Both the position numbers and the translations under genes were made by a program. 64,000 nt of DNA from the NCBI GenBank assembly GCA_009667805.1, contig CM019063.1, forward strand, positions 410,230,626 to 410,294,625. The letters are read 5' to 3'. This stretch comes from Leptobrachium leishanense. Taxonomy: Eukaryota > Chordata > Amphibia > Anura > Megophryidae. The stretch's first letter is position 1; each line of letters opens with the position of its first letter. Below the pieces are notes generated by a model that was given only the letters and a program-made list of their open reading frames with translations, did not search any database and was not told where the DNA came from. This document shows, in pieces, positions 13,276 to 41,012 of this stretch.

Positions 13276-16200
13276 ATGCCATTACATGTAATTTCACATA
13301 ATGTAAAAGGGTTTAATAATCCAATGAAAAGACGTAAGGCAATGCGATCATACGTTTCGTTGGGGGCGGATATTCTCCTTCTCCAGGAAACGCATTTCGC
13401 TCAGGGTAAATCCCCTAGATTTTTTGATAAACGATTCCCGCTGCATTACCACGCCTGTGCACCTACGAAACACCGGGGAACCTCCATTTTTTTCCGCTCC
13501 CGCGTTAATTTTGTCCTTCGTAGAAAAGTATTAGATAAGGAGGGACGGTTTCTGTTTCTTCAGGGCACTATTGACAATAGACCGTTAACACTCCTCAACG
13601 TCTATGCTCCCAACACAAGGGATCCTGCTTTCTATGACCGGCTCCTAACTTTGCTAGAGCCTTTCCCTGGGGGGAGGTGATCATCGGGGGTGACTTTAAC
13701 TCCATCCTGGACCGGGTTTTAGATAGATCTACCACCCCTACTCAGTCTGATTCTCACCCTAACCGCCCACTTCTTAAAAATTTTCTGCAACAAACCCAAA
13801 TAGTAGATGCTTGGCGCCTTCTGCACCCCACGACAAGGGATTACACGTTTTACTCCCACCCGAATACAACATACACGAGAATTGATTATGTCTTTGTCCC
13901 CCAGCGAGCCGTGAGGGATGTGCTATCTGCCAAGATCCATGAGATAACTTGGTCGGATCACGCCCCTCTCAGCGTGGTCTTGGCGGATGGCTCCAGAAGA
14001 TCCCCCCGCCCTCCCTGGTGCCTACCAGACGCCCTGTTGTTGAGGCCGGAAGTCATAACGGAACTGGACCTAGCGTTAGCAAACTTTGTTCTGGATAATA
14101 ACCCCGACCACTATCAACCAGACCTGTTGTGGACCACCCATAAGGTGGTCCTACGGGGCCGACTTATAGGTCTACAAGCGGCCCACTATAAGAAACTACG
14201 CACCCAAATGACGGACCTGACCGCTACCCTCGCTACTTTAGAGAGATCGCATAAAACTCAACCGGACCCTTTGATTTGGAACAGAATAGTGACTACTAGG
14301 GGGGAACTGAATTCATTACAGACGGAGAGGGCACTAGGTGACCTCCGTAGGGTCGGACAGCTATTTTTTGAGAAGGGAAACAAACCAGATGCCATGCTAG
14401 CCCGCAAACTGCGCGCCCTGCGTAAGCGTAACTCTATAGCGAAAATCCAGAGATGAGAGAAGTCCCCGGCAGTAACCCCATCAGAAATAGCGGAGGAATT
14501 TGCGCGCTACTACGCTAAGTTGTATGACGGCACGACAGCCCCATCTGATGACCAGAAACTACAAAAGATTCTCTCCTTTTTAGAACAACTGCCCCTACGT
14601 ATGTTGTCCCGGCCACAGGCGAACGAGCTGGCGACTCCAATTACCACTGAAGAGATCCTCCCAATACTGAAAGAACTCCGTACATCTAAAGCCCCAGGCC
14701 CGGACGGGTTTAGCCCCCTGTATTATAAGAAATTCCGAACCCAATTAGCCCCACTTTTAACTAATATGTATAACGGCTTCTTGGAAGGCAAATCCCCTCC
14801 CAAGGAACTGCTGGCCGCCTCCATAGTGGTGATTCCCAAGGAAGGGAAAGATCCTTCTACTTGCGCCAGCTACCGTCCGATATCTTTACTGAATGTAGAC
14901 ATGAAAATCTATGCAAAGGTCTTAGCTACGCGTTTGAGCCGTCACCTACCCTCACTAGTGCACCCTGACCAGGTCGGTTTTATCCCGTCTCGCGGTGCCC
15001 CTGACAATATTCGCCGCACGGTGAACCTACTCTCTATAGCGCACGCTTCCAAACAACCGTCCTTACTACTTTCCCTTGACGCCGAGAAGGCCTTCGATAG
15101 AGTGGACTGGACATATTATGGGGAGGTCTTGAGGAGATTGGTGTGGGGGAGGGGATGATAGGGGGTATTCGGGCACTTTACACTTCGCCAACGGCCTCAG
15201 TAATAACTATGGGAGGGAGATCAAGACCATTTGACATCTTAAATGGTACGCGTCAGGGTTGCCCCCTGTCTCCACTTCTGTTTGCCCTATGCCTAGAACC
15301 TCTGGCGGCACAGATAAGGGGTCACCCAGATATCTCGGGAATAGCAGTGGGCGACAAAAACTACAAACTGAGTCTATTTGCAGACGATATCTTACTCACG
15401 ATAACCCGACCCCTTGTTTCCTTACCGAACCTATACGGTTGCCTCTCCTCCTTTGGTGCTCTCTCTGGCTACAAAATTAATATTGCTAAATCTGAAGCAT
15501 TAAATATTTCTTTGCCTCAGGAGGTTGTTACACACCTACGGGAATCATTCACCTTTCGTTGGTGTCCCCATCGACTCCAATATCTGGGGATCTACCTCAC
15601 CGCTCACGTGCCACAGCTATACGCCGGTAATTACCCTGACATGATTAAGCACATCAAATCCCTACTGCGGCAATGGTCCTCCTACTCCATCTCCTGGATG
15701 GGCCGCATTTATGCCCTTAAAATGACAGCACTCCCGAAGCTTCTGTATCTTTTTCGCACCTTACCGGTCCCTCTACCTCTGACGATACTACCCGACCTCC
15801 AGTCAGCCTTTTACCGATACGTATGGCAAGGGAAGAAACCGAGAGTTTCCAGACTGATACTACGCCGCCCTAAGAAACATGGGGCCCTTGCTGTCCCTGA
15901 CCTAGCCCTGTACTATATATCGGCACAGTTGACGCAACTCCTCCAATGGTCCTCTAGAAGGGGTAGGGTCTGTTGGGTTGACATTGAGAATGACTATGTT
16001 ACCCCCTCATGCTTATCACAGGTTCCCTGGAGACAAATCTCCGCGGTAGAAAGGGGTCGTTTGTTGCCTACCACTGCTCATTCATTAGATATATGGTCTA
16101 AAGGCAAATACTGCATGTCCCTCACCACCACTACCTCTGGTCTGCTCCCCCTGCGCGATAACCCGCTCTTCCCCCCATGGAATGGGGAGGAGGGCCGAGC

Positions 16201-17055
16201 TTTTGAGTGGTGGCTTAGGAAAGGCTTTACGACCCTAGGAGCGGTGCTACTGCAGGGGAAATTTCCCCGGTGGGAATACTTTAGAGAGTCACATGATATC
16301 CCTTTACGAGAGTTTCATCGATATTCTCAAATCCGACATTTTGTACGTAGTCGCCTAAATATAGGCACCCCGGTTGAGACTCCATTCGAACGCCTAGTAA
16401 TGAGAAGCTCAAGCACAGCGGGAGCGATATCCCAAATATATAGTCTTCTTCTCCACCCGTCTCTTGACCGCCCGTGCTCGTACCAGCTCCTATGGGAAGC
16501 AGACCTGTGTCACCAATTCACCGGAGAGGAATGGGGGGCAATAACGGAGTCCTCGATGGGGATAACAACATGTACTCTGATAAAAGAAAATTGCTATAAG
16601 CTCCTCTCCAGGTGGTACCTGGATCCAGTCCGCTTACAGAAAATCTATCCCGCACTAACTGGCTTGTGCACAAGGGGTTGTGGCCAGCGTGGAACGTTTT
16701 ATCACATGTGGTGGGAGTGTGGGCTGGTAATAGTATTGTGGTCCTCAGTTTTCGCTATGATCTCCAGAGCTCTGGGTCTGCCAGTACACCCTGACCCCGC
16801 TTTGGCCCTGCTTAATAGCCCGTCCCGACGTCATGGTCTGCCTCGCTCCCCTTCGCCTAGCCCATCGTATATGTACATCTACTCGCATATGTATTGCCCG
16901 CTCCTGGAAACGAGACCTCCCCTCCATACCGGAGATAGAGGCGAAGGTGTGGTATATATATAAAATGGAACGTTTAACTGCTCAACTGCATGATACGCTT
17001 CAACAATGCACGAAGATCTGGGAACCTTGGCTCTCGACACAGACCATCCCGTAGT
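13276..17055 (+). pseudogene. L1 ORF2: endonuclease-reverse transcriptase, broken
   Basis: ORF2p nicks DNA and reverse-transcribes the element. The apurinic-type endonuclease is seen from 13276: HNVKG, the catalytic-glutamate motif QETH, NVYAP, GGDFN and the SDH motif (about 13960). The reverse transcriptase follows with PGPDGF, YRPISLLNVD, HPDQVGFIPSR, SLDAEKAFDRVDW, NGTRQGCPLSPLLF and the catalytic LFADD at about 15370. A C-terminal CX3CX7HX4C knuckle (CTRGCGQRG...HMWWEC) is at about 16670. The gene is broken by a frame change at about 13677, a TGA at 14454-14456, a frame change at 15130-15158 and another near 16750-16860, after which the C-terminus continues to 17055. Each piece retains its motifs. 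Confidence 0.92.
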
Positions 17056-17944
17056 CGGTTACAGAACAGTCGGACCTAGAGACCTTGATCTATAAACTTG
17101 GGAAATATATATTATTTTTTTTTTTTTTTTTTTCTCTTCTCTTTCTACTCTCCTTAGTTCTTCTCTCTGTATATTATTTATGTAGTTAATATTGTAAGTT
17201 TTATGCAATTGATTCGCATGTCCTTCTGCGGTATAATCATGTCTCAGGGAAAGACAGCAGGTTCAGTCTCTTTGTATTATTTGCTTACTTCTGTTGCTGC
17301 CTCCCTGAGATTATGTATCGCTCTATGGGCTTCCATGAGCGCCGTGTTGCTGTATTACTGAAAAACCAATAAAAATCGTGTTTTAAAAAAAAAAAACGCC
17401 TAAAAGATCCTAAAAATAAATAAATAAAGAGAGAGTTTTTACTGCAGATTAAAAGAATAAATGGTTTATTAGATATTGGTTAAAAAAACGGGAATTATTT
17501 TGGAATTGAAACCTATGGGATTCGCCTGATTAAACCTGCCAAATGAAACCACCGAACAACAGGGCATTTCACTGACATTTCTCTGCTGTTCGGTGTTCTC
17601 TGAATTAACCATTAACCATTGCTTCTCTATGGGGATTTCACTGCCGTCGAACAGGACCGTATTTGCAGGCAATACGACAAAAATTGACAAACTGCCTGCT
17701 CTCTGAATAGCCAAATGGCCAGTAAATGGCACTGTACGGGGAAATTCACTGTTTGGTGACATTTTGTGGCCAGATCGACTCTCTCTGAATATCCCTGATA
17801 ATAAAATTGGCATTTGAAAAAAATATATATCTTTTTCATAATTGTATGCCATGATGGCATACTTTGCATCTGAAATGGGGGGGGGGGCTGCCAATATCAC
17901 TGTGCTTGTAGCAAAAGAAGAGGAGTCTGCTGCCTATAAACTGT

Positions 17945-18845
17945 CAGGGTTATTCAAAGAGATCCGAATTGTGGCCGAAAAGGTAAACGAACAGTGAAAT
18001 TCAGCGTACGGTTACCTTTCCTGGCCATTCGGCTATTCAGAGAGCAGGCAGTTCGCCAAATGTTGGCGAATTGCCTGCACATATGGTGCCTGTCCGTTGC
18101 CTGTTCGAGGGCAGTGAAATCCCCATAGAGAAGCAATGCTTCGGCTATTCAGAGAACAAAAAACAGCAGTAAAAAGTTGCCGAATTTCCCTGCTGTTTGG
18201 TGGATTCGATCGACAGGTTTATTCATTTGAATCCCATAGGCTTCAATATTAAAAATATTCCTGTTTTAATCCAATGTCTAATAAACCGTTAATTATAATA
18301 TTCCGCAGTAAAAAGTCTCTTTATTTATAGATTTTTTAGGATCTTTTAGGCATTTTTCGGGCTTTTTTTGCGAAAATGCTTTTTCCCTTTTTTTTTTTTA
18401 AATATTTTTTTCTTTTTTCTGTAACAGCCCTTTTTATTATCATTCATTGGACCTCATGTGTAAATTTCAGACATTTTCGTTCAGTAGTTTCTTTGCAAAC
18501 AGCGTTTCACTTTTCAAACATTCAAGCATACTGGTTTTTGTGTTTTCACTCCATTTGTCTGCGGTGTTGGGTTTTTCCCGCAGCTGCTCTGCGCTGTAAT
18601 CGGCGACTGCTCGGGTTTCTCCGGTGTGTTTGGCAGGGTTAATCCAGATGTTTTTTGCGGGTTTCGGTGAGCGTTCGCTGGGTTTTGTGGTGAGTGTTAG
18701 ACGGGATTGCGGCGGCTTTTCCCTGCACTACGACGGCCCTGTGGTGCTTGCTGAATACACCGCAGGGTCGCCGAAATGGGATCGTCCAATCACACCGAAT
18801 TGAAGAGAACGAAAAGTCACCGAACGTTCTATTTGAATAACCCTG
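17945..18845. mobile_element. A-family MITE
   Basis: A 901-bp copy starting CAGGGTTATTCAAAGAGATCC and ending TATTTGAATAACCCTG. It has the family interior: GCAGGCAGTTCGCCAAATG, TATTCAGAGAACA, TAATAAACCG, TTCCGCAGTAAAAAGTCTC, TTACACATGAGGTCC (reversed) and ATTTTCGTTCAGTAGTTTC. The flanks (TGT and AAT) do not match, so either the duplication has decayed or the ends have recombined. It lies 150 bp from the right end of the previous copy. Confidence 0.75.
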
Positions 18846-21751
18846 AATGTGAAAATGGAGTAAAGTGTGTTGGTAGGGTTAATCCAACCCTAAAACAACC
18901 CTGACCCTGAAACAAGTACAAATCCTACCCTAAAGCTAACACGGACATTGATAAAATGATGCTAGTAGGGTACTAATTTTGACCAAAAAATTGTGTAATT
19001 TATGTAAGGATTAATCACAAAATGGCAAAAGTCAAACACTTGTAACATTACGAAACAGACAAACACTTAACTTTTCATTCTTATTCGAGGCATTAGTCTT
19101 TTTTACATTATGGGCCCTTTCCTGACCGACCCATTAATGTTAACGAGTGAGTTCGTTATACTCAACGGTTCACTTTCTAACAGTAATGGCTTTCCCTGCT
19201 ATTCCAGCTGAACTGGAAACTTTCCTTTCGCATCAATTGTATCAGCAGGTTACTTAAAACTAACCTAGCAGCTCACTTGTAATGGAGTTGGTAATAGGAA
19301 ACCACTAAGGCTTAACAGCTCATCTTAACTTCCCCCTGTAGGGACTCCCCATTACCGGCTGAGCTGGAATAGGGGTCCATGAAAACAAGAAAGGAAATAA
19401 AGATGAGAAATTATTTATTTGGTTGTTGTTTTGATTGTTGGTTTAGAAGTCAAATAATGCAAGCTTCAAGTCAAGCTAATTGTGCTCTATGTAGCTTACA
19501 GAGGAATAAGGCACATTTGTTTTGTTTATTTACTATACCTCGCATACCTAATTAAATTCTTGTTTGGATATGGAGAAAGCAGAGTATCTTAGTGAAATTG
19601 GATGATCTGACAAAGCGGACTCTGATGAGCAATTTTGGCATTAAGCTGATTTCTTGGCAGACAAGTCATGAAAAGTTACCTATGCAAACTTACAACAGCC
19701 CTATCTTCATTACAACAGTCCTGGATTTTGGGTCCCCCAAGTCCTGAGTTTTTCTCTGATTTGCTAATTCTGGTGCCACCAGAGAAGTATCCCTACAAGA
19801 CACACGTAAATATAACTCAAAATAGAAAGAAATAAACAATAGGCACTATGCATCAAGTACACCAGGTTTAGGGAAGTCATATCACCCAGTCAAATCTGTC
19901 CACCTAATGGAACGCCAATTGTAGCAATGCAGTAAAAGTGATTATAAACTCTTTAAAAAAACGCCATAAAAAAGTGGGGATCAAAACAAAAATATCATAA
20001 ATTTGATACAAAACATATATATGAAAGCGTATATAAATTACACTCACAGAGACATCCTAAATGTGCAACAGTAACATTGGCCAAAGTGGCCTAGTGCAAG
20101 CCCAGACCTCGGTCCTCCAGTTTATAGGGAAAATGGTAAGTTCCGATGGTCGAGGGCAGAGTATGGAAAGCTGGATATGCTTGGCTGTTGATGATTCAGG
20201 TTTCTTCAGAGGCTTATACTTGCACATCCAATCGATTGTTCCCGTTATATAAGTTTTGTAATTACACCCTTATCAGTATCCACGCTGATTTGATGTTCTG
20301 GCTGCAATACCATTTGTGTGTTTGGAACACTTCTGCCTTCAGTCACATAGTGTAGTGTGCGTAGTTACATCTTGTCGCCTAGGGCAATGAGGATTTCAGG
20401 TTTATCTCAACTTTAATAACAAATAAGAATACAACAAAACCTCATATTTCTAACACCTATCTATTTAGCAAGATCAACAACCTCTAAATTTGTGGAATAA
20501 GTGAATCAGATGTATTAAAAGAATGTCTAAATGACATCCCCGAAATGACAAAACCAACTATAATTTAATTTTAAAACAGATGTTCAAACTTTAAATTATT
20601 ATAGAAGCTAACAAAATCATTCCCCGTAAAATAGAGAAAAATTAAGCTTAATTAATGACAGGTGATTATTGCACAACAATATCAATGTCATTATTTAACC
20701 CATTATCCCCTACTGTGGGCTTACACAACGCCCATTCCTGTATTCCAACATCCATTACTATACTCTATACATAAAATACATACAAAATACATACAAAAAA
20801 GAGTTTTCTTTATCATAGCAATTAATACAGTGCCAAGGGACATTATGGGGGTTATTCAGTAACTGCCAGTATTGCAACAATGACAAATGATGACATTTCA
20901 CAAAAGGAAAATCTGAAGAATGACAGGAGAAGCCTCACTGTGAAGCTTGCGTTGTCGATCTTTGTATTTAATTTTTGTCAGTGTTACAACACCAACAATC
21001 TGGACAACTGTACTAACTCAATGCATGGCACATTGTGATTGGGCTGGTCCTCACTGCACTAGAGGTTAGGAACACTAAGCTAACACCTCTTTATGGGTAG
21101 GACAACTATCCTCCTCACTGATGATACTGCAGGGAATGTGACCACTATCTCATTACATCACTGAAGATCTAGCAGAGGGGTGCACAACTCTCCCACTTTT
21201 GTACGTTCAATGTTGGGGGCAATGAGGATAAAGAGAAGAAATGTGTTGAGAATCTATGATGACTATTCACTGTACAATGTGTTGTGGTAAGTTAAAGGAA
21301 CACAAGTAGCTGTAGTGTAGGTTACTATTACTATAGGCTATCTTGGAATATATATATACATATGGCCTAGATTAATCTAATGATAACAGATTGAAAGAAA
21401 AGTCTGCAATGCACAGGAATATGTGGATAGCCCAAGGCAATACATGAATTTCATTGGCAGAAATGAGGGCATGCCAATTTAATCAGAATTTTAAATATCA
21501 CGTTGGCTTAACAAACACATTCTATTTGTTAGCTATGCTGTGTTCGCGAACGCAAAACAAACTTATTATGTAGCGTCTTATAAAAAATAAGATAAATATG
21601 CACTGAAATGACATGAGGTGCAGTCATGGAAAATCTCTCTCTCTCTAGTATAGTCTCCTAATTGTCTCGTTAAGCACAATTTGAAGCGGGGGTCATCGCT
21701 GCATCTTAAAGCTTAACAGTTATTCCCTGATGTAGAATGTTCTAATCTACG
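18846..21751. other. No recognisable feature
   Basis: About 2.9 kb of AT-rich intergenic DNA. A GGGGGTTATTCAGTAACTGCC word at 20846 resembles an A/B-family terminus, but no partner end follows. A short run of alternating GCTGAACTGG/GAGCTGG words near 19200-19370 is also unexplained. No coding domain was found. Confidence 0.4.
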
Positions 21752-22299
21752 CAGTGGTGTATCTTGGCCTAGGTTGACTAGGCCTAGGGTGGCATTTTCC
21801 AGGGGCGGCCACCCGCCCTGCTGCTCAGTGGAACCCGCTGCCTGCAACTGCTGGTTTCTAAAACCCCTGCCACCGAGCGTTGCAGGGCCTCCACTGTCAC
21901 GTGCAACACCTCCACTGTCACTTGCAGCTATTGTCTTTGCGCTGGGAGGAAGTGATCATATAACGTCACTTCCTCCCAGCGCTCCACCATAATGCAGATG
22001 CCGCGGAGGAGAGAGGTGGCTTGAAAGACCCAGACCCAAGGTTCACCGCGCTTTCCGGCACTCGATGCGGCTGATGATCCCTCCGTGCTGCCCTGACAGA
22101 CGCAGGACACATCGCCTCACCTCGCTGAGCTTGCGGACTGACCTGCAGGAGGAGGAGCTGGGCCATGACCGTGGAGCAGATTGTCCTGCAGCAAACTTCC
22201 CAGAAGGTAAGCGGAGCTACCACCCTGCAGCACCCCTCCCCCCGGGAGCACAGCAGAATGTCACACACACACACGACCATGTAATGAAATGCTCTCCTC
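21752..22299 (+). mobile_element. Left end and interior of a hAT-type element
   Basis: Begins CAGTGGTGTATCTTGGCCTAGG and continues ACTAGGCCTAGGGTGGCA, TTTCCAGGGGCGGCC. These words are the terminus of the complete element at 50477-52403, which has an 8-bp duplication. The matching right end is absent. The GC-rich interior contains an inverted GCTGGGAGGAAGTGA / TCACTTCCTCCCAGC pair at about 21940-21980 and an ATG at 22164 followed by a good splice-donor-like AAGGTAAGC (22204-22212). The right border with the retroviral sequence is uncertain. Confidence 0.55.
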
Positions 22300-22521
22300 T
22301 TCAGGGAATCAAGTCAAATATGCTGCTGAGATCTCCGTGATGCTGTGTGGAAACCGAGTGCTGTCAGTATCATGCACTGCCGGGGTCACCAAAAGTGTGA
22401 TACCGAAATACCCAAAGGAAATAGGCGAGCAGACCAAGCTGCAAAATGTGCGGCTAAACCACCAGTACAACACTGTCAAGTCTCCGGGATTCTCCTCTGC
22501 AAGCAAGATGCTCAAGCTTTA
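22300..22521 (+). pseudogene. Retroviral pol: C-terminal RNase H remnant
   Basis: RNase H degrades the RNA strand of the RNA:DNA hybrid in reverse transcription. The sequence starts in frame 2 (GNQVKYAAEI, 22304-22333) and changes to frame 1 by 22345, where HCRGHQK and GNRRADQAAK are read. The histidine-containing GHQK motif and the D in RADQAA are the C-terminal end of the gammaretroviral-type RNase H fold. Everything upstream is missing. The frame then runs without a stop into the OGFR-like block. Confidence 0.8.
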
Positions 22522-23166
22522 ATGCCAAACTACGAATTCTATATGAATTGGAAAAAGTTTGAACCTCATGGAGAATTCATCGAAATTATTCTACAAAGAT
22601 GGGGTGATGACTTTGAATTGCTTGAAGATAACCATGATTATATTCAGTGGCTCTTCCCGACTGTGGAACAAGGCCGAAATTTCTACTCTACGCCTCTGAG
22701 TCCCCAAGAAAAGAATCTGATGTGTAACACCTCAGAAATTCAGCAATGATTCCTTCGAGCATACAAGATGATGCTGAAATTCTTCGGCGTAAAATTAGTG
22801 GGGGAGGATGGAGAAGACACAAAAATAACGGACGTTGGACGAGCAGAAAATTTTGCCGAGCGTTTTGACAATCTGACAATCAACACTCATAATAATTTGA
22901 GAATTACCCGTGTCTTGCTGAGCTTGGGAGAATTAGGAGCTGAAGAATATCAAGCCCCCCTGGTGAAGTTTCTCCTCAAGGAGATCCTTCTTGAACATAA
23001 CCTGCCAAGAATGAAGAAAAGGGCAATGAACTTCTTTGTGCCAGCAGTGAGGGATGAACAGAAGAGACAAGACCTACTATACTTCGCCTGGCGGCACTAC
23101 CAACCACAATAAGAATTTATGTGGAGAAGGCATGAAGAATTCAAAAGATACAAGACCCTACCGTCA
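22522..23166 (+). pseudogene. Captured OGFR-like domain inside retroviral pol
   Basis: About 215 codons match the conserved N-terminal domain of opioid growth factor receptor (OGFr family), a host nuclear-associated protein and not a viral one. Visible signature blocks in order are an N-terminal NYEFYMNW region, GEFIE, LLEDNHDYIQWLFP (about 22620-22662), AYKMMLKFFGVKL, HNNLRITRVLLSLGELG (about 22888-22938), YQAPLVKFLL and RDEQKRQDLLYFAWRHY, then the W..H-type tail and basic FKRYK. The vertebrate gene has introns; here the block is uninterrupted, so it is cDNA-like. It lies in frame 1 together with the RNase H tail upstream and the integrase region downstream. It has in-frame stops at 22747-22749 (TGA) and 23110-23112 (TAA). 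No poly(A) tail or flanking duplication is visible at either junction. Confidence 0.85.
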
Positions 23167-24370
23167 ATGGTAGCCCCGTTGTTGCCAGCTCCCTTGAGCG
23201 AATGGACACCTGTGTATTCAGAGAAGGAGAAGAAATGGCTGTCAGAAGAACCAGGAAAGTATGGAGAAGATGGATGGTTCCAGTTGGAGAACAACCAAAT
23301 AGTCCTACCTGCGACATTGGCACCTGAAATTGTAAGAGCAGTCCACGCCAACACACATGGAGGGAGAGAAATGATGGAACAACAGTTGGAGCCACATTTC
23401 TACGTACCTGGATTGTCAGTGATCTGTAAGGCAGTAGCCCAGCAGTGTGTGACATGTGCCAAGAATAACCCAAGAACAGGCCCATCGCAGCCTCCAGGAA
23501 AGCAGCCTATCGGACTGTCCCCAATGGCATCGCTGCAGATAGATTTGCCACCCTGCAAAGGATACAAATATCTGCTCGTGATGGTGTGCACTCTGACAGG
23601 ATGGGTAAGAGTCCTTCCCCACAAGGACTGAGAAGACAGCAGAAGTAGTGAGAAGCCTAATGAGAGAAATTATACCAACGCTATGGACTTCCACTTGAAA
23701 TTGGGTCAGATAATGGCCCAGCTTTTGTACAGAACTGTTTGCAGCAGCTTGCTCGCTTATTGGGTATAACCTGGAAGCTACACACAGCCTACAGGCCCCA
23801 AAGTTCAGGAAAAGTGGAGCGCATGAACAGAACACTAAAAACTTTGATGTCAAAACTGTGCCAAGAAACGTCACTGGGCTGGTTGGAGGTGCTGCCGATA
23901 GCCTTATTGCATATTAGATGCAGGCCAACCCCCCAATTGAAGCTAAGTCCGTATGAACTCATGTTCGGGTGGCCTACCCCTCTGATTAATGGGTTAAGGG
24001 GGGACCTTCGGGCATTGGGTGAAACCAAACTGAATGAGCAAGTGTTATTGCTGGGTCAATCAATGCAGAAATACTTGGGTGGGAGATAATCTACCTCATT
24101 TCTTGTATCCCCACTGCATAAGTATTGTCCAGGTGACTCGGTTTGGGTGAAGGAGTGGAAAATGACCCACTAGGCCCAAAATGGAGGGGTCCTTATCTTG
24201 TCCTGTTATCCACCCCCACAGCAGTGAAGGTTGCCGAGGTGGTTCCGTGGATACACCACTCGAGACTGAAAGCCAGTGCAGCTAACCCTGAATCAGAGTG
24301 GAGAGTCATCCCCAGTGAGACCAATCCACTGAGGCTGAAACTGACAAAAACTGCGGCTCCAAGCATCTAA
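23167..24370 (+). pseudogene. Retroviral integrase, frameshifted
   Basis: Integrase inserts viral DNA into the host genome. From 23167 frame 1 gives the linker before integrase, then the zinc-binding H-x3-H...C-x2-C region (VHANTH ... CVTC, about 23338-23455), and the first catalytic aspartate in QIDLPP (about 23537). A stop follows at 23629-23631. The core continues in another frame with the second aspartate in GSDNGPAF (about 23702) and the glutamate in GKVERMNRT (about 23811). The C-terminal part, with a KWRGPY (GPY/F-like) motif, is in a third frame (24143-24370). At least two frame changes disable it. Confidence 0.88.
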
Positions 24371-24381
24371 AGACTCAACAA

Positions 24382-26111
24382 GTGGGTGTTTTGAGGGCCA
24401 TAATAATGCCTGACCACCCGCCAGCGAGGGAGAATGGGGATACCCAGAGGGAAACCCCAAGGGCTATTTTTCGGGGACCTCCTTTTTCCCCAGCCCAACC
24501 CGAAATGACCTTCACTCTTGAGATACCAGGGGGGAGGGATAGGGTTTATGTGACTGTGAAAAGAATTGTCCAAGGGATTTTGACACTGGGAGCATTCCTG
24601 GTGCGGATACTTTACCTCGCCAACCTTATCTATGGCCTACCACGTGGAACCTGTCCATATTGTCCAAATATGACTGGTAGAGTGGATATCTCCCACATCT
24701 GGAATGGCACCCACCCAGTTATGGAGAATTGTACCATGTGGAGACAGAAGCGTGACTTGGGCTCCATGACCACACCAAGAGGTCACCTGTTGGTGAAATC
24801 CAAATACGCCTATGCCAAGAAATCAGGACAAAAAGCGTGTTGGGTGTGCAGCAGATTGCACCCAGAGATAATTTATATCCCGTTTGCTGCAATTCCTATG
24901 AACTTAAGCACATTTGCAACCGGAAATATTGCAATCCATACAATCTCTGACCCCCAGATAAAGCCAGATGAGACAATGCCAGATTATCCAATAACTTGTC
25001 CTGTGTACCCGCGTGAATGGTGTTTCCAGATAGGGACAAATAATCTGAGTATGAGTGGAAATCCGTGCCAGTCTAGTAGGTTTAATTTTACAGCACATAC
25101 AATTTTGTCAGGAGCAGGGACTGGATTGTTTGTGGTCAGGCCCCTGAGACTAACCCCGGAACAGCAACTGACCATAGCTAATGTGACAACAGACAAACAG
25201 AATGCGAGAGATCTTGTGACACATTTGATAAGAATGATGATTGAGGTTCGCAAGGGAACACTACATTTGTCCCCATTTATATTGACGGGAGGGTACCAGG
25301 TGTGCTGTGGGAGTGTGTGTTACACATGGGTACCACCTACAACTACAGGAATGTGCTATCTAGCTAAACTGATCCCAATTCAGAGGGTACGGGGGAAGAC
25401 ACAGCCTCAGACACTGCATTACACCCTAGGTACCCACTGGTGTTTGAGAAACAGAAAAGAGAGTTGTTTTCAAAGAAGGACCAGGCATGGGCATGGTTTC
25501 CAACATGGACTGGATGGGGAAGGGACTTGATGAGGAGAATGAACAATTACTCAATGCTGATAGATGAGATTTTGAATAGAACGAGCAAGGATATCCAGCT
25601 GTTGAACCTTGAGTTGTGTGAAATCCGAAAGTTGCAAATGATACATGACATGGCATTGGAACAGATCAGTGCAGCATTGAATGGACTGTGTGAAATGACT
25701 ATGCATTATGAATGTTGCACCTATATCAGAAACACATCATATGAGGTCCCTGACTATTACCAGGTAATCCAAGACCACCAGGAGAAAGTTGCCCAGTTGC
25801 AGAATACAGCCAGGCAGATTGCAGCAGAAGGCTGGAACCCTTTTCGAGGGTTCGGGTCATTCGGAGATTGGTTTGGATCAATCCTGGGATTTATCTCACA
25901 GATTGGATCCATGATAATGATGATGATAGTGATCCTGGTGGTAGGGATGGTGTTGTACCGGATAGGGATATGTCTATGGCCACTGTGCAAGAAAGCTCTG
26001 ACACCCACACAAACACAGAAGATACCGTTGATGATCCCACAGGAGATGTTCCCACTTAAGGCGATTCCCCCTAAGTACAAAGTGTTTGAGAATAGCAATA
26101 GTGGAGTGTAG
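24382..26111 (+). pseudogene. Retroviral envelope (SU + TM), frameshifted
   Basis: Env is the membrane glycoprotein precursor. The SU part is open in frame 1 from 24382 to 25530, with a hydrophobic stretch near residues 63-85, several N-x-S/T sites and a CWVC motif at about residues 153-156 (24838-24849). TM is in frame 3: a KQKREL basic segment near 25450, an ISAALNGLCEM region followed by a cysteine motif C-x7-C-C (about 25688-25717), an aromatic-rich GWNPFRGFGSFGDWFGSI membrane-proximal stretch, a membrane segment (about 25905-25985) and a cytoplasmic tail to 26111. The two frames are out of register, with the change at about 25385-25440. The spacing of the TM cysteines is one residue longer than the usual CX6CC. 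Confidence 0.88.
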
Positions 26112-26151
26112 TGGCTAAGGGTCTCAGGAGGAGAACCTGAAACCCTAGCCA

Positions 26152-26160
26152 AGGGGGGAA
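26152..26160 (+). promoter_or_regulatory. Polypurine tract
   Basis: AAGGGGGGAA directly precedes the TGTAGGGG start of the LTR. This is the expected position and composition for the primer of plus-strand DNA synthesis. Confidence 0.8.
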
Positions 26161-26654
26161 TGTAGGGGACTCAGGCCAGGATCAGGCCGCCATCTTGAGC
26201 CAGGCGGCCATCTTGTTCAGAACTTTGGTTCACGTGAATGTAAATAGCAAATATTAGTTCAATTAGGTTTAGCTTACATAGATTCTCTGGAATTCTCTAA
26301 ACTAACAGGCAGAGCAATTAAGTTAATGAGATCCAGGCAGATGCTGGCACGGAGTGACAGGATGGAAAAGTAGTTACATCAAGGTCAGAAAGCTAGGTCC
26401 TGAACAAAGAGAGATGTGAAACCAGACGGGGCCTTATCTAAAGACTACAATAAACAAGTCCCAGGGAGGGAGACACAAGCAGGATCTAGGAGAGCGTTAA
26501 ATTACCAACTTGTCAAAATACTTTGAAAGCTGCCAATTTATTGCCAATGTGGAATGTCTTTGTATTCAGTGAAGGGAGGTACAGACCCACGTGGGGTGGG
26601 ATAGTGTCACCATGGGGTGGGCTAATTGGTATGTGCCTAATTATCTATTCAAGG

Positions 26655-26661
26655 TATAAAA
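26655..26661 (+). promoter_or_regulatory. LTR TATA box
   Basis: TATAAAA in the LTR. The MITE insertion at 26668 lies immediately downstream and so separates it from the R region. Confidence 0.6.
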
Positions 26662-26667
26662 CACTAT

Positions 26668-27562
26668 CAGGGTAATTCAAAGAGATTCGAAAAGTCACCG
26701 CACGTTCGGTGACTTTTCGTTCTCTTCAATTCGGTTCCTTTTGCCGATCCCATTTCGGTGATCCTGCGGTGTATTCAGCAAGCACCACAGGGTCCCCGAA
26801 TTGCAGGGAAAAGCTACCGCAAACCAGACGAAGACGAACCGCAAAACCCAGCGAATGCACGCCGAAAACCCTCAAAAACATCTGGATTAACCTGCCAAAA
26901 AAACACAGAAAAACAGGAGCAGGAGCCGATCACACGCAGCGAAGCCGCCGGAAAAAGGCGAGAAAGCCGAGACTGCAGAGTGAAGTAAATAAATTAGGAA
27001 AACAGTTTGTATGAATGTTTGAAATGTGAAACGCTGTTTGCAAAGAAACTACTGAGCGAAAATGTCTGAAATTTACATATGAGGTCCAGGGAATGATAAT
27101 AAAGAGGGCTGTTACAAAATAAGTAAACTTAAAAAAAAAAAAATATTCAGAAAAATGCTTAAAATATCCTAAAAAATCTATAAATAAAGAGACTCTTTAT
27201 TGCAGAATTTTATAATGAACGGTTTATTAGATGTTGAATTAAAACCGGAATATTTTTAACATTGAAGCCTATGGGATTCTCCTGAATAAATTTGCCGAAT
27301 TAAACCACCGAATGGCAGGGCATTTCTTAAACCTTTCACTGCTGGTTTGTGTTCTCTGAATAGCTGAAGCAGTGCTTTTCATGGGGTTTTCACTGCCCTC
27401 GAACATGCACCGAACAGGCACCGTATGTTCAGGCAATTCGCCAGGATTTGGCGAATTGCCTGCTCTCTGGAAAGCCGAATGGCCAAGAAAAGGTAACCGA
27501 ACGCTGATTTTCAGCGTTCGGTTACCTTTCTCAAGCAACTCGGATCTCTTTGAATAACCCTG
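26668..27562. mobile_element. A-family MITE inserted in the ERV LTR
   Basis: An 895-bp element starting CAGGGTAATTCAAAGAG and ending CTCTTTGAATAACCCTG, flanked by TAT at 26665-26667 and 27563-27565. Just inside the left end is a perfect 13-bp hairpin, CGAAAAGTCACCG / CGGTGACTTTTCG (26688-26719). Just inside the right end is a second one, GGTAACCGAACGCTGA / TCAGCGTTCGGTTACC (about 27496-27531). The interior has ATAATAAAGAGGGCTGTTAC, AATAAAGAGACTCTTTATTG, TTTATTAGATGTTGAATTA and GCCTATGGGATTCTCCTGA. It is non-coding. Confidence 0.88.
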
Positions 27563-27968
27563 TATGTCTGTATGTAAGAGGCACTCAGTCTTTGCGATTC
27601 AATCCTGGCTGAGTGATGACGTCACAATAAAGTTCGCCTTTCCTGAAGAGACTCGTGTCCAGTCAGTCTTTGTACGCGCCAGTCCGGTCTTCTCCCGAAA
27701 GAGCCAGGTGGATTCCGGTAACAATGTTAAGACCATACTTGATAAAGGCTCTGTATTAGACCTGAAATTTTTCTATTTTTGATTCCAAATAAAACTGTCT
27801 TTTGAGGAAATCTACCCAGTGTGACTGGCATTCTTCTTTCCAGTTTAAGAATTTGGAGGACTTTTTGCTGAGTGGAACCTGGAGTGGCTTTTCAGTGAAG
27901 TATTGTGTGTGTCAGGTGTTCCTGTTTCCAATTTTCCTTACAGTCAGGTGACATGGTGCAGCTAACAA

Positions 27969-37180: not shown

Positions 37181-37727
37181 TGTAACGTTGGGAGCTTCCA
37201 GCCCTACCTGTGTGCTTGAGGGCAGCATGTCTGATGCTGCTCGCTGACCAATGCCCGGTTTAAATGGAGAGAGGCAGGGAGGTGGTTGCATGAGGCGCGG
37301 CTTGAGTGGGGGCGTGGTCTGGTGAAGGTCTTTAAAAACCCTCAGTGTATTCTCAGCAGTTGCCAGATCGTGGTTATCCATACCTGAGCTCCTTGTACCT
37401 GACTGCTATATTGAATTAACCCGTTATTGACCTCTGCTTGTTTCTGACTATTCTGCCTTCTGTTGCCCTAGACCATTTTCTTGTACTACGCCACTGCTCT
37501 GATATCGACCCGGCTATTCCATTTGACCATTCTGAACTCTGTATTCCTGATTCTGGCTCGGCTGACTACTCCCCGTGTTGTTAACCCTTTCTGTCTAGCT
37601 AGTTTACCTGGCCAATTCTAAGGACCAGACAGTTAGAGATCTTTCACGGCTACTCTGTTGGTAGCTTCTGGGCTCTGTGGAGTGTTGGGCGTTAAGTACT
37701 GCGTGGTGGGATCTGGGAACCGTGACA
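37181..37727 (+). repeat. Ty3/gypsy 5' LTR
   Basis: Starts TGTAACGTTGGGAGC and ends AACCGTGACA; the ends are short imperfect inverted repeats with TG...CA borders. It is followed by TTACGATCTGGCCGATATGG, where the primer-binding region is expected, and then the gag start at 37744. A TTTAAAAA box is near 37330. Confidence 0.75.
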
Positions 37728-37743
37728 TTACGATCTGGCCGAT

Positions 37744-40700
37744 ATGGATCCCGCAGACTTAACACAGCACTTGGCTAACTTTGTATCCAGACAGGATGAG
37801 CAGGATCATAGGATGGATCAGTTTGCTATTGCCTTACAAACTATCCTGACTCGTACTGCTCACCTGGAACCAGCTGGGGTTGCACCCCCGCTTGATATAC
37901 CTGTGTCCCCTGTCGTTCAGACATCCCAGGTACACATGACCACTCCTATGAGGTTTGACGGTACTCCCTCAGAGTGCCGGGGATTTTTGGTCCATGTGGA
38001 TATTCATTTTAAATTAAATCCACAGATGTTTTTCTCTGACATTGCCAACGTGGGATTCATTATTAATCATCTGTCTGGCAGAGCATTGACATGGGTGACT
38101 CCTTTATGGGAGGCAGAGAAGCCTATCATACGGGATTATAAAGAATTCATAGCCGAGTTACAACGTACATTTAATCCTACCAGAAAGGCCACGGTAGCTG
38201 GCAAATCCTTGTTCCGCATTCGTCAAGGGAACAGGACTGTGTCTGATTATGCCATAGAATTTAAAACCTTGATCTCTGATGTGAACTGGACAAATGAGAC
38301 ACTGGTTCTGGCTTTTATGGAGGGGTTATCAGAATCATTGATGCATGAATTGGCTCCACGTAAACTACCTGAGGTATTGTGTGAACTCATTGATTATTGT
38401 ATAGATCTGGATAATCAGATAAGGGACAGAAGGACTCCAAGAGAGAAACCCAAGAGACCGTTACCTAGGTTGGCCCCTGTCTTTCAGGCACCACCAAGAG
38501 AGTTTTCTCCTCCCTCTGAGCCTATGCAACTAGACCGTACTAGGCTTTCAGAAGAAGAGAGAACAAGGCGTTTTCGTGAGGGATTGTGCCTGTATTGTGG
38601 TTTGGGGGGACATGTACGATTTCAATGTCCTACTCGTCCTAAGATACATGATAAGCCGGAAAAACTACCGCACCTAAGGCAGCTGAGGAGACAGGCCTTG
38701 GGTGTGACGTGCATGTCTCCTGTCAAAGACACTAAACTTATGTTACCAGTATCCTTGGCTTGGGAGACCAAGACCACACATACTACCGCTTTTTTTGATT
38801 CTGGGGCTGCTGGCAACTTTATCGATGTTAACTACGCTTCTTCCATTTCCCTACCTCTGGTTGTAAGAGAGACACCCTTAGCCGTCGAAGCCATAGACGG
38901 CAGACCCTTATCCTGCCCTAGGATTACTCACGATACGGTTACAGTGGTTCTTACCACTGGTCTCTTGCATAAAGAAGAAATCATATTTCAAGTTATCCAT
39001 TCACCTTCCAATCCTGTTGTACTTGGTTTCCCTTGGTTGGTGGAACATAATCCTGTTATTGATTGGGCTAAGGGAGAGATACTGTCTTGGAGTCCTGCTT
39101 GTTTTGGGACTTGTTTAATACCCATTCAGCATGTCGGTGCCCTGAACACACCCACAGCTCCTCCATTGTCTACAGAGGTTCCTGACCAATATGCCGACCT
39201 CAGGGCTGTATTTGATAAAAGGGAGGCAGAGAAACTGCCTCCACATAGACCATATGATTGTGCCATAGATATTCATCCTGGTACCATGCCTCCTCGAGGC
39301 AAAGTATATCCTCTTTCCATAAAGGAGAACCAAATTATGGAGGAGTATATAAAGGAGAATTTGGAGAGAGGTTTTATCCGACGTTCCTCTTCTCCAGCAG
39401 GAGCTGGGTTCTTTTTTGTGTCTAAAAAAGAGGGAGATTTACGCCCATGTATCGATTATAGGGGGCTTAACAAGATCACCATTAAGAACGTGTACCCTAT
39501 CCCTCTCATATCAGAACTGTTCGACAGGTTAAGGGGGTCAGCAGTATACACAAAACTTGATTTGAGAGGAGCTTACAACCTGATACGTATAAAAGAGGGG
39601 CATGAGTGGAAAACAGCATTTAACACCAGGAGTGGGCATTATGAATACTTGGTCATGCCTTTCGGTCTTTGTAATGCTCCAGCGGTATTCCAGGATTTTA
39701 TTAATGATGTGCTCAGAGATTTCTTACAAACCTTTGTTATAGTATACCTAGACGATATATTGATTTACTCTCCCGATCTGAAAACCCACTAGGCACATGT
39801 CAGACAGGTATTAGCAAAATTACTGGACAATGGTCTTTATTGCAAACTAGAGAAGTGTTTATTCGACATTACCACTGTGAAATTTCTTGGGTATATTATC
39901 ACTCCAGAAGGTTTTGAGATGGATCCTTCTAAACTCACGGCCATCTCAGAATGGCCTCTCCCTCAAGGTCTCAAGGCCATACAGAGGTTTCTGGGGTTTT
40001 CCAACTATTATAGGAGATTTATCAAGAATTATTCCGCTGTAGCCTCCCCTATCATTAATATGACACGTAAAGGTCTGAAGAACCAGATCTGGTCTTCTCA
40101 ATCCAAACAAGCATTCGAAGCCCTCAAACAGGCTTTTACTTCCGCTCCCGTGTTACGGCATCCTGATCCCAGGATTCCGTTTGTTCTTGAGGTTGATGCT
40201 TCCGAGATAGGCATTGGGGCTGTCCTGTCTCAAAGAGAGTCTCCAGGAAAACCTCTACATCCTTGTGGGTTGTTTTCGAGAAAATTATCACCAGCAGAAC
40301 GCAATTACGATATCGGTAACAGAGAATTGCTTGCTATTGTGTCTGCCCTATCAGAGTGGAGACATTTGTTGGAAGGTACTCTTGACCCTTTATTGATAAT
40401 TACTGATCATAAGAACCTTACGTACATCGGGATGCTAAACGTTTGAACGCGAGACAGGCCAGGTGGTCATTGCTACTGTCTCGGTTTAATTTTGTATTGA
40501 CTTACAGACCAGGTGACCGCAATGTAAAGGCTGATGCCTTATCTCGTCAATATGACCCGTATGAATCTAATACACAAGACCACAATCCTATAGTTCCTCC
40601 TGAACGTATTGTGGCTTCCACAGTCTTGTCTGTCTCCTCACCTTTCCTGGAACGCCTCCAGGCAGCTCAAGTGGGGGCTCCACCTGACAAGCCTCCAGAT

Positions 40701-41012
40701 ATGTTGTTTGTACCTGAAAAGGAAAGACAAGAATTACTCATAATGTTTCATGATTCTAAACCAGCAGGTCATCCTGGTATTACTAAGACTCTTACCAGTA
40801 TCTCCAGACAGTTCTGGTGGCCCACCATGCGACAGGACGTACGTCTGTTTGTTTTGGCTTGTCAAGTCTGTGCCAGAAGCAAAACCAGTAAATCCTTGCC
40901 TGTCGGTCTATTGCAGCCTTTACCCATGCTTAAGAGGCCTTGGTCTCATCTATCTATGGATTTTATTGTGGACTTGCCGAGGTCCAAGGGTCATACTGTG
41001 GTTCTCAGATGA
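37744..41012 (+). pseudogene. Ty3/gypsy Gag-Pol polyprotein, truncated in integrase
   Basis: The frame opens at ATG 37744, 17 bp after the LTR. Gag covers about residues 1-270 and ends in a CCHC knuckle, CLYCGLGGHVRFQC (about 281-294). Next come the protease with the DSGAAGNFID active site (about 351), reverse transcriptase with KLDLRGAYNLIRI and catalytic YLDDILIYS (about 668), and RNase H with [13 protein letters not shown] and RELLAI. The integrase HHCC region (GHPGITKT ... CQVCARSK) and the first aspartate in SMDFIVDLP follow. Gag, protease and RT are in a single frame. There is a TAG at 39790-39792 and a one-base frame change near 40430. The sequence stops at 41012, so half of integrase and the 3' LTR are missing. 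Confidence 0.92.

What the first reader, a model, noticed from the sequence alone, without database searches (positions are those of the whole stretch)
22480..23180. Host OGFR domain captured in-frame within the pol of an endogenous retrovirus
Seen: an intronless block of about 215 codons with OGFr-family signatures (LEDNHDYIQWLFP, HNNLRITRVLLSLGELG, YQAPLVKFLL) sits between RNase H and integrase of the ERV. RNase H tail, OGFR block and integrase start share one reading frame, interrupted only by stops at 22747 and 23110. No poly(A) or target duplication marks the block. Known: acute retroviruses transduce spliced cellular sequences, and some lentiviruses carry dUTPase between RNase H and integrase, so this position in pol tolerates an extra domain. 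Inference: the virus captured a spliced OGFR-like mRNA and expressed it as part of Gag-Pol. I know of no described retrovirus carrying OGFR.
Basis: partly seen in the sequence, partly recalled or inferred. Interest (0 to 1): 0.93.

Follow-up and report, generated by a model that had tools for sequence, protein, structure and literature searches.

The report
Frog retrovirus carrying a host gene domain
In the genome of a moustache toad, a large and recently active family of endogenous retroviruses carries a piece of the toad's own OGFR gene built in-frame into its polymerase gene, between RNase H and integrase, and that piece looks to have been kept by selection; I found no published description of such a retrovirus.

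Summary
In detail: one frame runs RNase H tail – OGFr_N – integrase at window 22330-23631, broken only by stops at 22747 and 23110. It is not a one-off. In the window's own genome (Leptobrachium leishanense) PF04664 gave 5871 first-look candidates; the 150 scored all passed the cut-off. All 28 loci examined align to this pol; 18 span the RNase H–OGFR junction and 26 the OGFR–integrase junction in one alignment. Seven of 20 copies are open over 2.4 kb; LTR pairs of nine copies differ by 0-16 mismatches, with 4-base target duplications in at least three. Gag and pol domains are gammaretroviral. Three OGFR-less relatives lack about 230 residues exactly between RNase H and integrase. Viral OGFRs form one clade beside the two Leptobrachium OGFR genes, whose domain is split over five blocks: a spliced mRNA was captured, apparently once. 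dN/dS is about 0.08-0.14 (copies chosen by score). The function in the virus is unproven; I favour a virion-borne module acting around nuclear entry. My paper searches found no description.

The parts
22290..22440 (+). 5'-truncated pol of the provirus: tail of RNase H
   Evidence: similarity to other copies starts at 22290-22298 in the 14 earliest-starting alignments shown; PF00075 match, weak on its own; full RNase H domain directly upstream of OGFR in L008
22516..22746 (+). captured OGFr_N domain, first piece
   Evidence: PF04664 positions 4-79, E 7e-20
22747..22749 (+). stop codon TGA inside the OGFR domain of this copy
   Evidence: 133 of the 150 scored copies have no stop inside the domain (counted by hand)
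22750..23109 (+). captured OGFr_N domain, second piece
   Evidence: PF04664 positions 82-196, E 2e-42; placed within the viral OGFR clade
23110..23112 (+). stop codon TAA between OGFR and integrase of this copy
23113..23631 (+). start of integrase, with zinc-binding domain at about 23308-23475
   Evidence: PF17921 E 1e-10, PF09337; in the OGFR-bearing integrase clade
23664..24089 (+). integrase core remnant in another frame
   Evidence: PF00665 E 3e-5, below the curated cut-off
24319..26111 (+). env-like open frames (24319-25530 and 25368-26111); CWVC at 24838-24849 and a CX7CC at 25689-25718
   Evidence: open frames; motif letters checked; no Pfam env family matched; motif meaning from PMC9967133
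26161..27723 (+). 3' LTR-like end (TG at 26161, CA at 27722); the part about 26663-27570 looks like another repeat inserted in it
   Evidence: blastn identity of 26101-26662 (67-75%) and 27573-27723 (80-84%) to LTR-bearing pieces of other copies; ends checked; the insert is read by eye

Best explanation
A gammaretrovirus-type virus of the lineage leading to Leptobrachium captured, apparently once, a spliced piece of the host OGFR mRNA (the globular OGFr_N domain, about host residues 112-325 of 340) in-frame into pol, exactly between RNase H and integrase. The virus kept it as an extra Pol domain (Gag / PR-RT-RNaseH-OGFR-IN / Env), and descendants with this pol colonised the germ line over a long time and until recently; the window holds one truncated, broken copy. 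Shown: architecture, family-wide occurrence, single clade, continuous copy of an interrupted host domain, low dN/dS, recent insertions. Inferred: translation as part of Gag-Pol and packaging into virions. Proposed mechanism (about 0.35 on its own): as part of Pol, fused to or cut away beside integrase, the domain enters the target cell with the core and uses OGFR's nuclear-envelope/nuclear partner to help the integration complex reach or stay in the nucleus. Second choice (about 0.25): it competes with cellular OGFR and blunts growth arrest, because gammaretroviruses need dividing cells (recalled).
For: Domain order RNase_H - OGFr_N - integrase domains in L002, L004, L007, L008 (in L004 and L007 the integrase lies in a separate frame) and in UniRef proteins of L. 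leishanense (P0010, P0015, P0025). 150 of 150 scored genome matches pass the Pfam cut-off, with open frames up to 1569 aa and nine of exactly 1440 aa (counted by hand). Junctions shared at DNA level by 18 and 26 of 28 loci. Integrase tree: 34 OGFR-bearing rows form one clade (100/95*) against 39 OGFR-less rows. The OGFR-less pol P0123 has 2 residues where P0015 has 229; P0124 0 against 230; P0126 12 against 241. OGFR tree: 36 viral rows one clade (100/100*), joined to the two Leptobrachium OGFR genes against 24 other host rows (100/99*). Host domain in five separate blocks on C12. OGFR dN/dS 0.08-0.14 in the dS bins from 0.03 upward, RNase H tail 0.06-0.21, integrase start 0.09-0.27. 76 columns at least 95% conserved in hosts: the host residue is kept in 84% of viral rows on average. 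LTR pairs with zero mismatches in 4 of 9 copies and 4-base target duplications in at least three. Gag_MA, Gag_p30, PR and RT in pieces of other copies.
Against: No expression, virion or cleavage data. The copies were picked by HMM score, which favours intact ones and lowers dN/dS somewhat; many deep pairs have saturated dS (41 of 253 for OGFR). The AU test gave p 0.0496 for holding all pelobatoid host genes together without the virus and p 0.172 for virus + Pelobates, so the donor's place is not beyond doubt. Whether OGFR-less sister copies exist in this same genome did not complete (genome search busy). Viral OGFR domains are acidic (median pI 6.0) while host ones are basic (8.7), and 8 of the 76 most conserved host columns are changed in most viral rows, so the activity may have changed. 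No solved relative of the domain was found.
Confidence: 0.9

Rival explanations
1. One-off retrogene: a processed OGFR copy dropped by LINE machinery into this single provirus.
For: The block has no introns, and the genome is rich in LINEs (24.8% in PMC6895153, passage seen; a LINE lies at 11.5-17 kb of the window).
Against: The same in-frame junctions occur in 18 and 26 of 28 other loci, the family has young copies with near-identical LTRs, and OGFR-bearing integrases are one clade.
Confidence: 0.01
2. Capture was by a LINE-made OGFR retrocopy landing in a provirus that then stayed active, rather than by template switching during reverse transcription.
For: The end product would look the same; LINEs are abundant in this genome (PMC6895153).
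Against: The block starts and ends inside the coding sequence, in frame at both ends, with no 3' UTR or poly(A) seen in the window copy; a LINE copy usually runs to the poly(A) (recalled).
Confidence: 0.15
3. The domain works as a sink or dominant negative for the OGF-OGFR growth-arrest axis, keeping infected cells dividing so that a gammaretrovirus can reach the chromatin.
For: OGFR is at the nuclear envelope and in the nucleus and blocks G1/S through p16/p21 (PMC10968813, passages seen). Only the central domain was taken, without the host's N-terminal stretch or C-terminal tail. Columns conserved in hosts are mostly kept.
Against: Pol is made in small amounts (recalled); no separate expression of the domain is visible; net charge has changed.
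Confidence: 0.25
4. The domain is a neutral or merely structural spacer between RNase H and integrase.
For: This site in pol tolerates an extra domain in nonprimate lentiviruses (dUTPase upstream of integrase, PMC8278194, passage seen).
Against: dN/dS about 0.1 and retention of residues conserved in host OGFRs go beyond what a spacer needs. The 28 loci cannot speak to loss, as they were chosen for having the domain.
Confidence: 0.07
5. The open frames are host genes domesticated from the virus rather than viral genes.
For: Open frames and low dN/dS are also signs of domestication.
Against: Many dispersed copies, LTR pairs and target duplications, gag and pol domains; the signal spans several lineages of a large repeat family.
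Confidence: 0.02

Closest known systems
KIT-ligand capture in CrocERV29 (crocodilian ERV; PMC4299795, abstract and passages seen)
   Same: a host mRNA kept by an ERV lineage without loss of viral domains, under purifying selection, with the viral copies grouping beside the host gene
   Different: there a separate frame between pol and env, nine ORF-bearing copies, surrounding provirus broken; here an in-frame domain inside pol, many copies, open pol frames and recent insertions
Nectin3 capture in CrocERV31 (same paper)
   Same: host mRNA captured by an ERV lineage
   Different: there it replaces env; here the usual gag, pol and env parts are still seen, though in pieces from different copies
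dUTPase domain upstream of integrase in pol of nonprimate lentiviruses (PMC8278194, passages seen)
   Same: an extra domain at this place in pol
   Different: different domain and retrovirus group; dUTPase is an enzyme of known activity
v-src of Rous sarcoma virus and cyclin homologues of walleye retroviruses (named in PMC4299795; otherwise recalled)
   Same: growth-control gene taken from the host
   Different: separate genes; here the captured part is fused into Pol
Gammaretrovirus-like ERVs of lizards, caecilians and Pelobates (for example P0124-P0126, P0133, P0148; P0123 from an unnamed source) and reticuloendotheliosis virus (P0150)
   Same: among the nearest pol and integrase relatives
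   Different: no OGFr_N domain noted in any of the 112 listed rows beyond the eight OGFR-bearing L. leishanense ones (120 of 188 hits were listed; one of the 112, P0152, is also from L. leishanense)
OGFR protein of Marseillevirus LCMAC202 (A0A481YX38)
   Same: a virus with an OGFr_N-like fold, 18% identity in the structural match
   Different: giant DNA virus, stand-alone 186-aa protein, only distantly similar

Membership tests
OGFr_N domain family (PF04664) | match over the curated cut-off across most of the profile | tested here: met
   two pieces of the window copy 71.9 and 145.5 bits against a cut-off of 22; whole domain 258-268 bits in L002, L004, L007, L008
OGFr_N domain family (PF04664) | descends from vertebrate OGFR rather than resembling it by chance | tested here: met
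   tree of 62 rows, virus + Leptobrachium OGFR genes 100/99*; the AU test leaves virus + Pelobates open; OGFRL1 was not in the tree
Gammaretrovirus-type (class I) ERV | Gag_MA and Gag_p30 gag, PR-RT-RNaseH-IN pol, MLVIN_C | tested here: met
   on database proteins and pieces of copies other than the window's
Gammaretrovirus-type (class I) ERV | pol groups with gammaretrovirus-like pols | tested here: met
   nearest OGFR-less hits include lizard, caecilian and Pelobates ERVs and reticuloendotheliosis virus; integrase tree; no full genus-level tree was made
Gammaretrovirus-type (class I) ERV | LTRs with TG...CA ends and 4-base target duplication (recalled as typical) | tested here: met
   three copies directly and a fourth after shifting the edge by one base, of nine examined (read by eye); the others were partial or unclear
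Gammaretrovirus-type (class I) ERV | gag and pol in one frame separated by UAG | tested here: met
   one copy examined: UAG in frame; this copy has a further in-frame stop downstream
Gammaretrovirus-type (class I) ERV | gamma-type Env: CXXC in SU and CX6CC in TM | tested here: inconclusive
   CWVC present, but CX7CC in place of CX6CC in the window copy; PMC9967133 writes CXnCC, typically n = 6
Retroviral capture of a host mRNA | host gene has introns, viral copy has none | tested here: met
   host domain in five blocks (introns inferred from gaps in tblastn); continuous frame in viral copies
Retroviral capture of a host mRNA | same junctions in many dispersed copies | tested here: met
Retroviral capture of a host mRNA | OGFR-less relatives show the site before insertion | tested here: met
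   P0123, P0124, P0126; not tested within the same genome
Functional Pol domain in virions | domain translated and packaged | not testable with these tools
   needs proteomics or transcript data

The most novel reading that the evidence does not exclude
A still-circulating or very recently circulating gammaretrovirus of Leptobrachium delivers a host-derived OGFR domain with its Pol/integrase into cells, where the domain works as a virion-borne nuclear-entry or cell-cycle module: a host signalling domain turned into a permanent part of a retroviral replication protein.
Probability: 0.35. Interest if true: 0.93.

Novelty: new variant of a known kind. Interest (0 to 1): 0.86.

Why it matters
Retroviruses are known to pick up host genes, but mostly as separate passengers, often at the cost of viral genes (PMC4299795, passages seen). 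Here a host domain became an in-frame part of Pol, survived in a large radiating virus lineage, and shows dN/dS about as low as neighbouring pol parts. It gives a many-copy natural experiment on what OGFr_N does biochemically; I found no solved relative of that domain. It also shows, besides dUTPase in nonprimate lentiviruses, a second use of the RNase H–integrase boundary as a place for a new domain. The host is listed among threatened species with invading ERVs in PMC10435555 (figure legend seen); whether those are this family I do not know.

Tried and rejected
One-off retrogene and chance similarity: rejected.

P0029, which I first labelled viral, proved to be a tandem host paralogue on C12 and was relabelled.

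IMG/VR scan with the window's OGFR piece: 9 pattern hits, none confirmed. A protein search with the same 120-residue piece found one relative, from Leptobrachium.

LTR comparison: the pairs L031/L032 and L035/L036 gave no LTR match to each other, so those two copies gave no estimate. Of the nine pairs, C5:246.2, C13:10.45 and C3:2.27 gave partial LTR alignments only.

Absence from print rests on paper searches (open-access full texts only; listings and starts of abstracts seen) and on passages of PMC10435555, PMC6895153 and PMC8278194, in which the words OGFR and opioid do not occur. UniRef does hold unnamed L. leishanense proteins with this Pfam layout, so the fact is latent in databases.

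Rows dropped: one search used the 23 of 28 loci without a stop in the domain, and 19 and 14 for the flanks, which were cut at fixed offsets and align poorly in some deep pairs; pairs with undefined dS were 51 of 171, 41 of 253 and 23 of 91; the lowest dS bins (1 or 2 pairs each) gave 0.44, 0.00 and 0.30. One search used 39 of the 104 OGFR-less rows and left out L006 (counts checked); L016 had no integrase piece long enough. The quick tree of all 139 rows was built but its display failed. One search left out 19 of the 63 rows and added 18 loci.

Full report
Observation. The window lies at G000:C1:410230626-410294625. The assembly has 3.545 Gb and a 394,693,044-base contig C4, matching the 3.54 Gb, scaffold N50 of 394.69 Mb and 13 chromosomes reported for Leptobrachium leishanense (PMC6895153, passages seen); database proteins of that species are identical to translated loci in the compared domain (P0007 = L021, P0010 = L025). 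In the window one frame runs from 22330 to 23631 and holds, in order, the tail of RNase H, OGFr_N and the integrase zinc-binding domain, interrupted only by stops at 22747 and 23110.

Not a single locus. A search of the same genome with PF04664 gave 5871 first-look candidates; 150 were scored and all 150 passed the cut-off, 133 of them without a stop inside the domain and nine in open frames of exactly 1440 residues (counts by hand; the scored ones are the best, so these shares are biased upward, and 5871 is not a copy number). I read 28 loci around the domain. All 28 match the window's pol by blastn, 18 of 28 span the RNase H–OGFR junction and 26 of 28 the OGFR–integrase junction in one alignment. 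Similarity to the window begins at 22290, so the window copy lacks its 5' part. Of the 20 loci, seven are open over all 2.4 kb. Pfam shows RNase_H, OGFr_N and integrase domains in this order in L002, L004, L007 and L008 (in L004 and L007 the integrase stands in another frame), and in one protein in P0010, P0015 and P0025 of L. leishanense.

What virus it is. Pieces from other copies hold Gag_MA and Gag_p30, a protease and a reverse transcriptase; database proteins add the MLV-type integrase C-terminus. In the one copy looked at, gag and pol share a frame with UAG between them, followed by a further stop. LTRs are about 690 bases long and end in CA, with 4-base target duplications in at least three of nine copies. 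Among 188 protein hits to the RNase H–OGFR–integrase part, 120 were listed; 8 carry OGFr_N and all 8 are from L. leishanense; the other 112 do not, among them one short-domained L. leishanense protein (P0152). Near relatives are ERVs of lizards, caecilians and Pelobates, and reticuloendotheliosis virus. It is thus a gammaretrovirus-type ERV; the Env motif of the window copy is slightly off (CX7CC rather than the usual CX6CC; PMC9967133).

Direction and number of events. Against OGFR-less pols P0123, P0124 and P0126, the OGFR pol has 229-241 residues where these have 0-12, at the boundary of RNase H and integrase (the models P0133 and P0148 lack the start of integrase and say nothing here). In the integrase tree the 34 OGFR-bearing rows are one clade (100/95*) and 39 OGFR-less rows lie outside (bootstrap not fully settled). 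In the OGFR tree 36 viral rows are one clade (100/100*), and these plus the two Leptobrachium OGFR genes are separated from 24 other host rows, Pelobates and Spea included (100/99*). Against this, the AU test gives only p 0.0496 for holding the pelobatoid host genes together without the virus, and does not reject virus + Pelobates (p 0.172). The deepest-branching viral copies (L001, L006, L005) all carry stops, and L005 and L001 are the closest to the host protein (66 and 65%), as expected of old members of a lineage evolving away from its donor.

Donor gene. P0019, taken as the host OGFR, maps to C12, and a tandem paralogue (P0029) lies about 15 kb away. The domain falls in five blocks: residues 131-161, 162-185, 184-232 and 234-340 at 90-100% identity, and 113-137, which matches 96% beside the paralogue and 65% (95-137) in the gene's own place. 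Viral copies hold the same stretch without interruption. What was taken is the globular domain, in most rows host residues 112-325; the host's first 110 residues and the tail are absent. Hence a spliced mRNA was most likely the source.

Selection and age. NG86 estimates on copies without stops give dN/dS of 0.140, 0.084, 0.139, 0.114 and 0.138 for OGFR in rising dS bins above 0.03, against 0.06-0.21 for the RNase H tail and 0.09-0.27 for the start of integrase (the saturated pairs and lowest bins are told under Tried and rejected). The window's second piece against its eight nearest loci gives 0.13-0.25. The copies were chosen by HMM score, which biases toward intact ones; I judge that this alone would not give a seven- to twelvefold deficit at high dS, but an unbiased sample was not made. 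Of 76 columns at least 95% conserved among 26 host rows, viral rows keep the host residue in 84% on average, against 18% for the 69 least conserved columns; eight of the 76 are changed in most viral rows. The viral domain is more acidic (pI 6.0 against 8.7). LTR pairs show 0 mismatches in 4 of 9 copies (two over 675 or more aligned bases), and 1, 2, 7, 9 and 16 in the others, so some insertions are recent. PMC10435555 lists L. leishanense among threatened species with invading ERVs (figure legend seen); whether those are this family I do not know.

How it may work. Host OGFR sits at the outer nuclear membrane and in the nucleus and restrains G1/S through p16/p21 (PMC10968813, passages). A domain between RNase H and integrase would be made with every Gag-Pol and should enter the virion (inference). 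Selection at the level of neighbouring pol parts points to a role in replication itself. I therefore favour help at nuclear entry or retention of the integration complex (0.35), then competition with host OGFR to keep cells dividing (0.25). Neither is shown. The model of the domain is confident but has no informative match in the PDB.

Novelty. Gene capture by ERVs is known: KIT-ligand between pol and env of CrocERV29, nectin3 replacing env in CrocERV31, src and cyclin homologues in exogenous viruses (PMC4299795). An extra domain upstream of integrase is known for dUTPase (PMC8278194). A host signalling domain fused into Pol and kept through a large ERV radiation was not found in the searches. 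I rate it a new variant of a known kind.

Not settled: OGFR-less sisters within this genome, occurrence in other Megophryidae, expression, proteolytic processing, and function.

Noticed in passing
L049-L051 (C12:9476000-9506000): The host OGFR gene is tandemly duplicated in L. leishanense (P0019 and P0029, about 15 kb apart); one block of P0019 (113-137) matches best beside the other copy, so the gene model may mix the two.
   Followed up: partly
window 13638-16963: A LINE with endonuclease and reverse transcriptase frames (PF03372, PF00078).
   Followed up: no
window 37726-41012: A Ty3-type retrotransposon with capsid, RT, RNase H and integrase zinc-binding frames, one of them 688 residues long.
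   Followed up: no
window 26663-27570: A palindromic repeat seems inserted in the 3' LTR; a similar repeat stands at about 17940-18850 (read by eye).
   Followed up: no
window 25689-25718: The transmembrane Env motif reads CX7CC where gamma-type Envs usually have CX6CC.
   Followed up: partly
viral OGFR rows: Viral OGFR domains are acidic (median pI 6.0, 35 rows) while host domains are basic (8.7, 26 rows).
   Followed up: no
BFVD A0A481YX38: A marseillevirus also encodes a protein named opioid growth factor receptor.
   Followed up: no
P0002-P0006, P0008, P0009: Some fish and poison frogs have proteins with two or more OGFr_N-like stretches.
   Followed up: no
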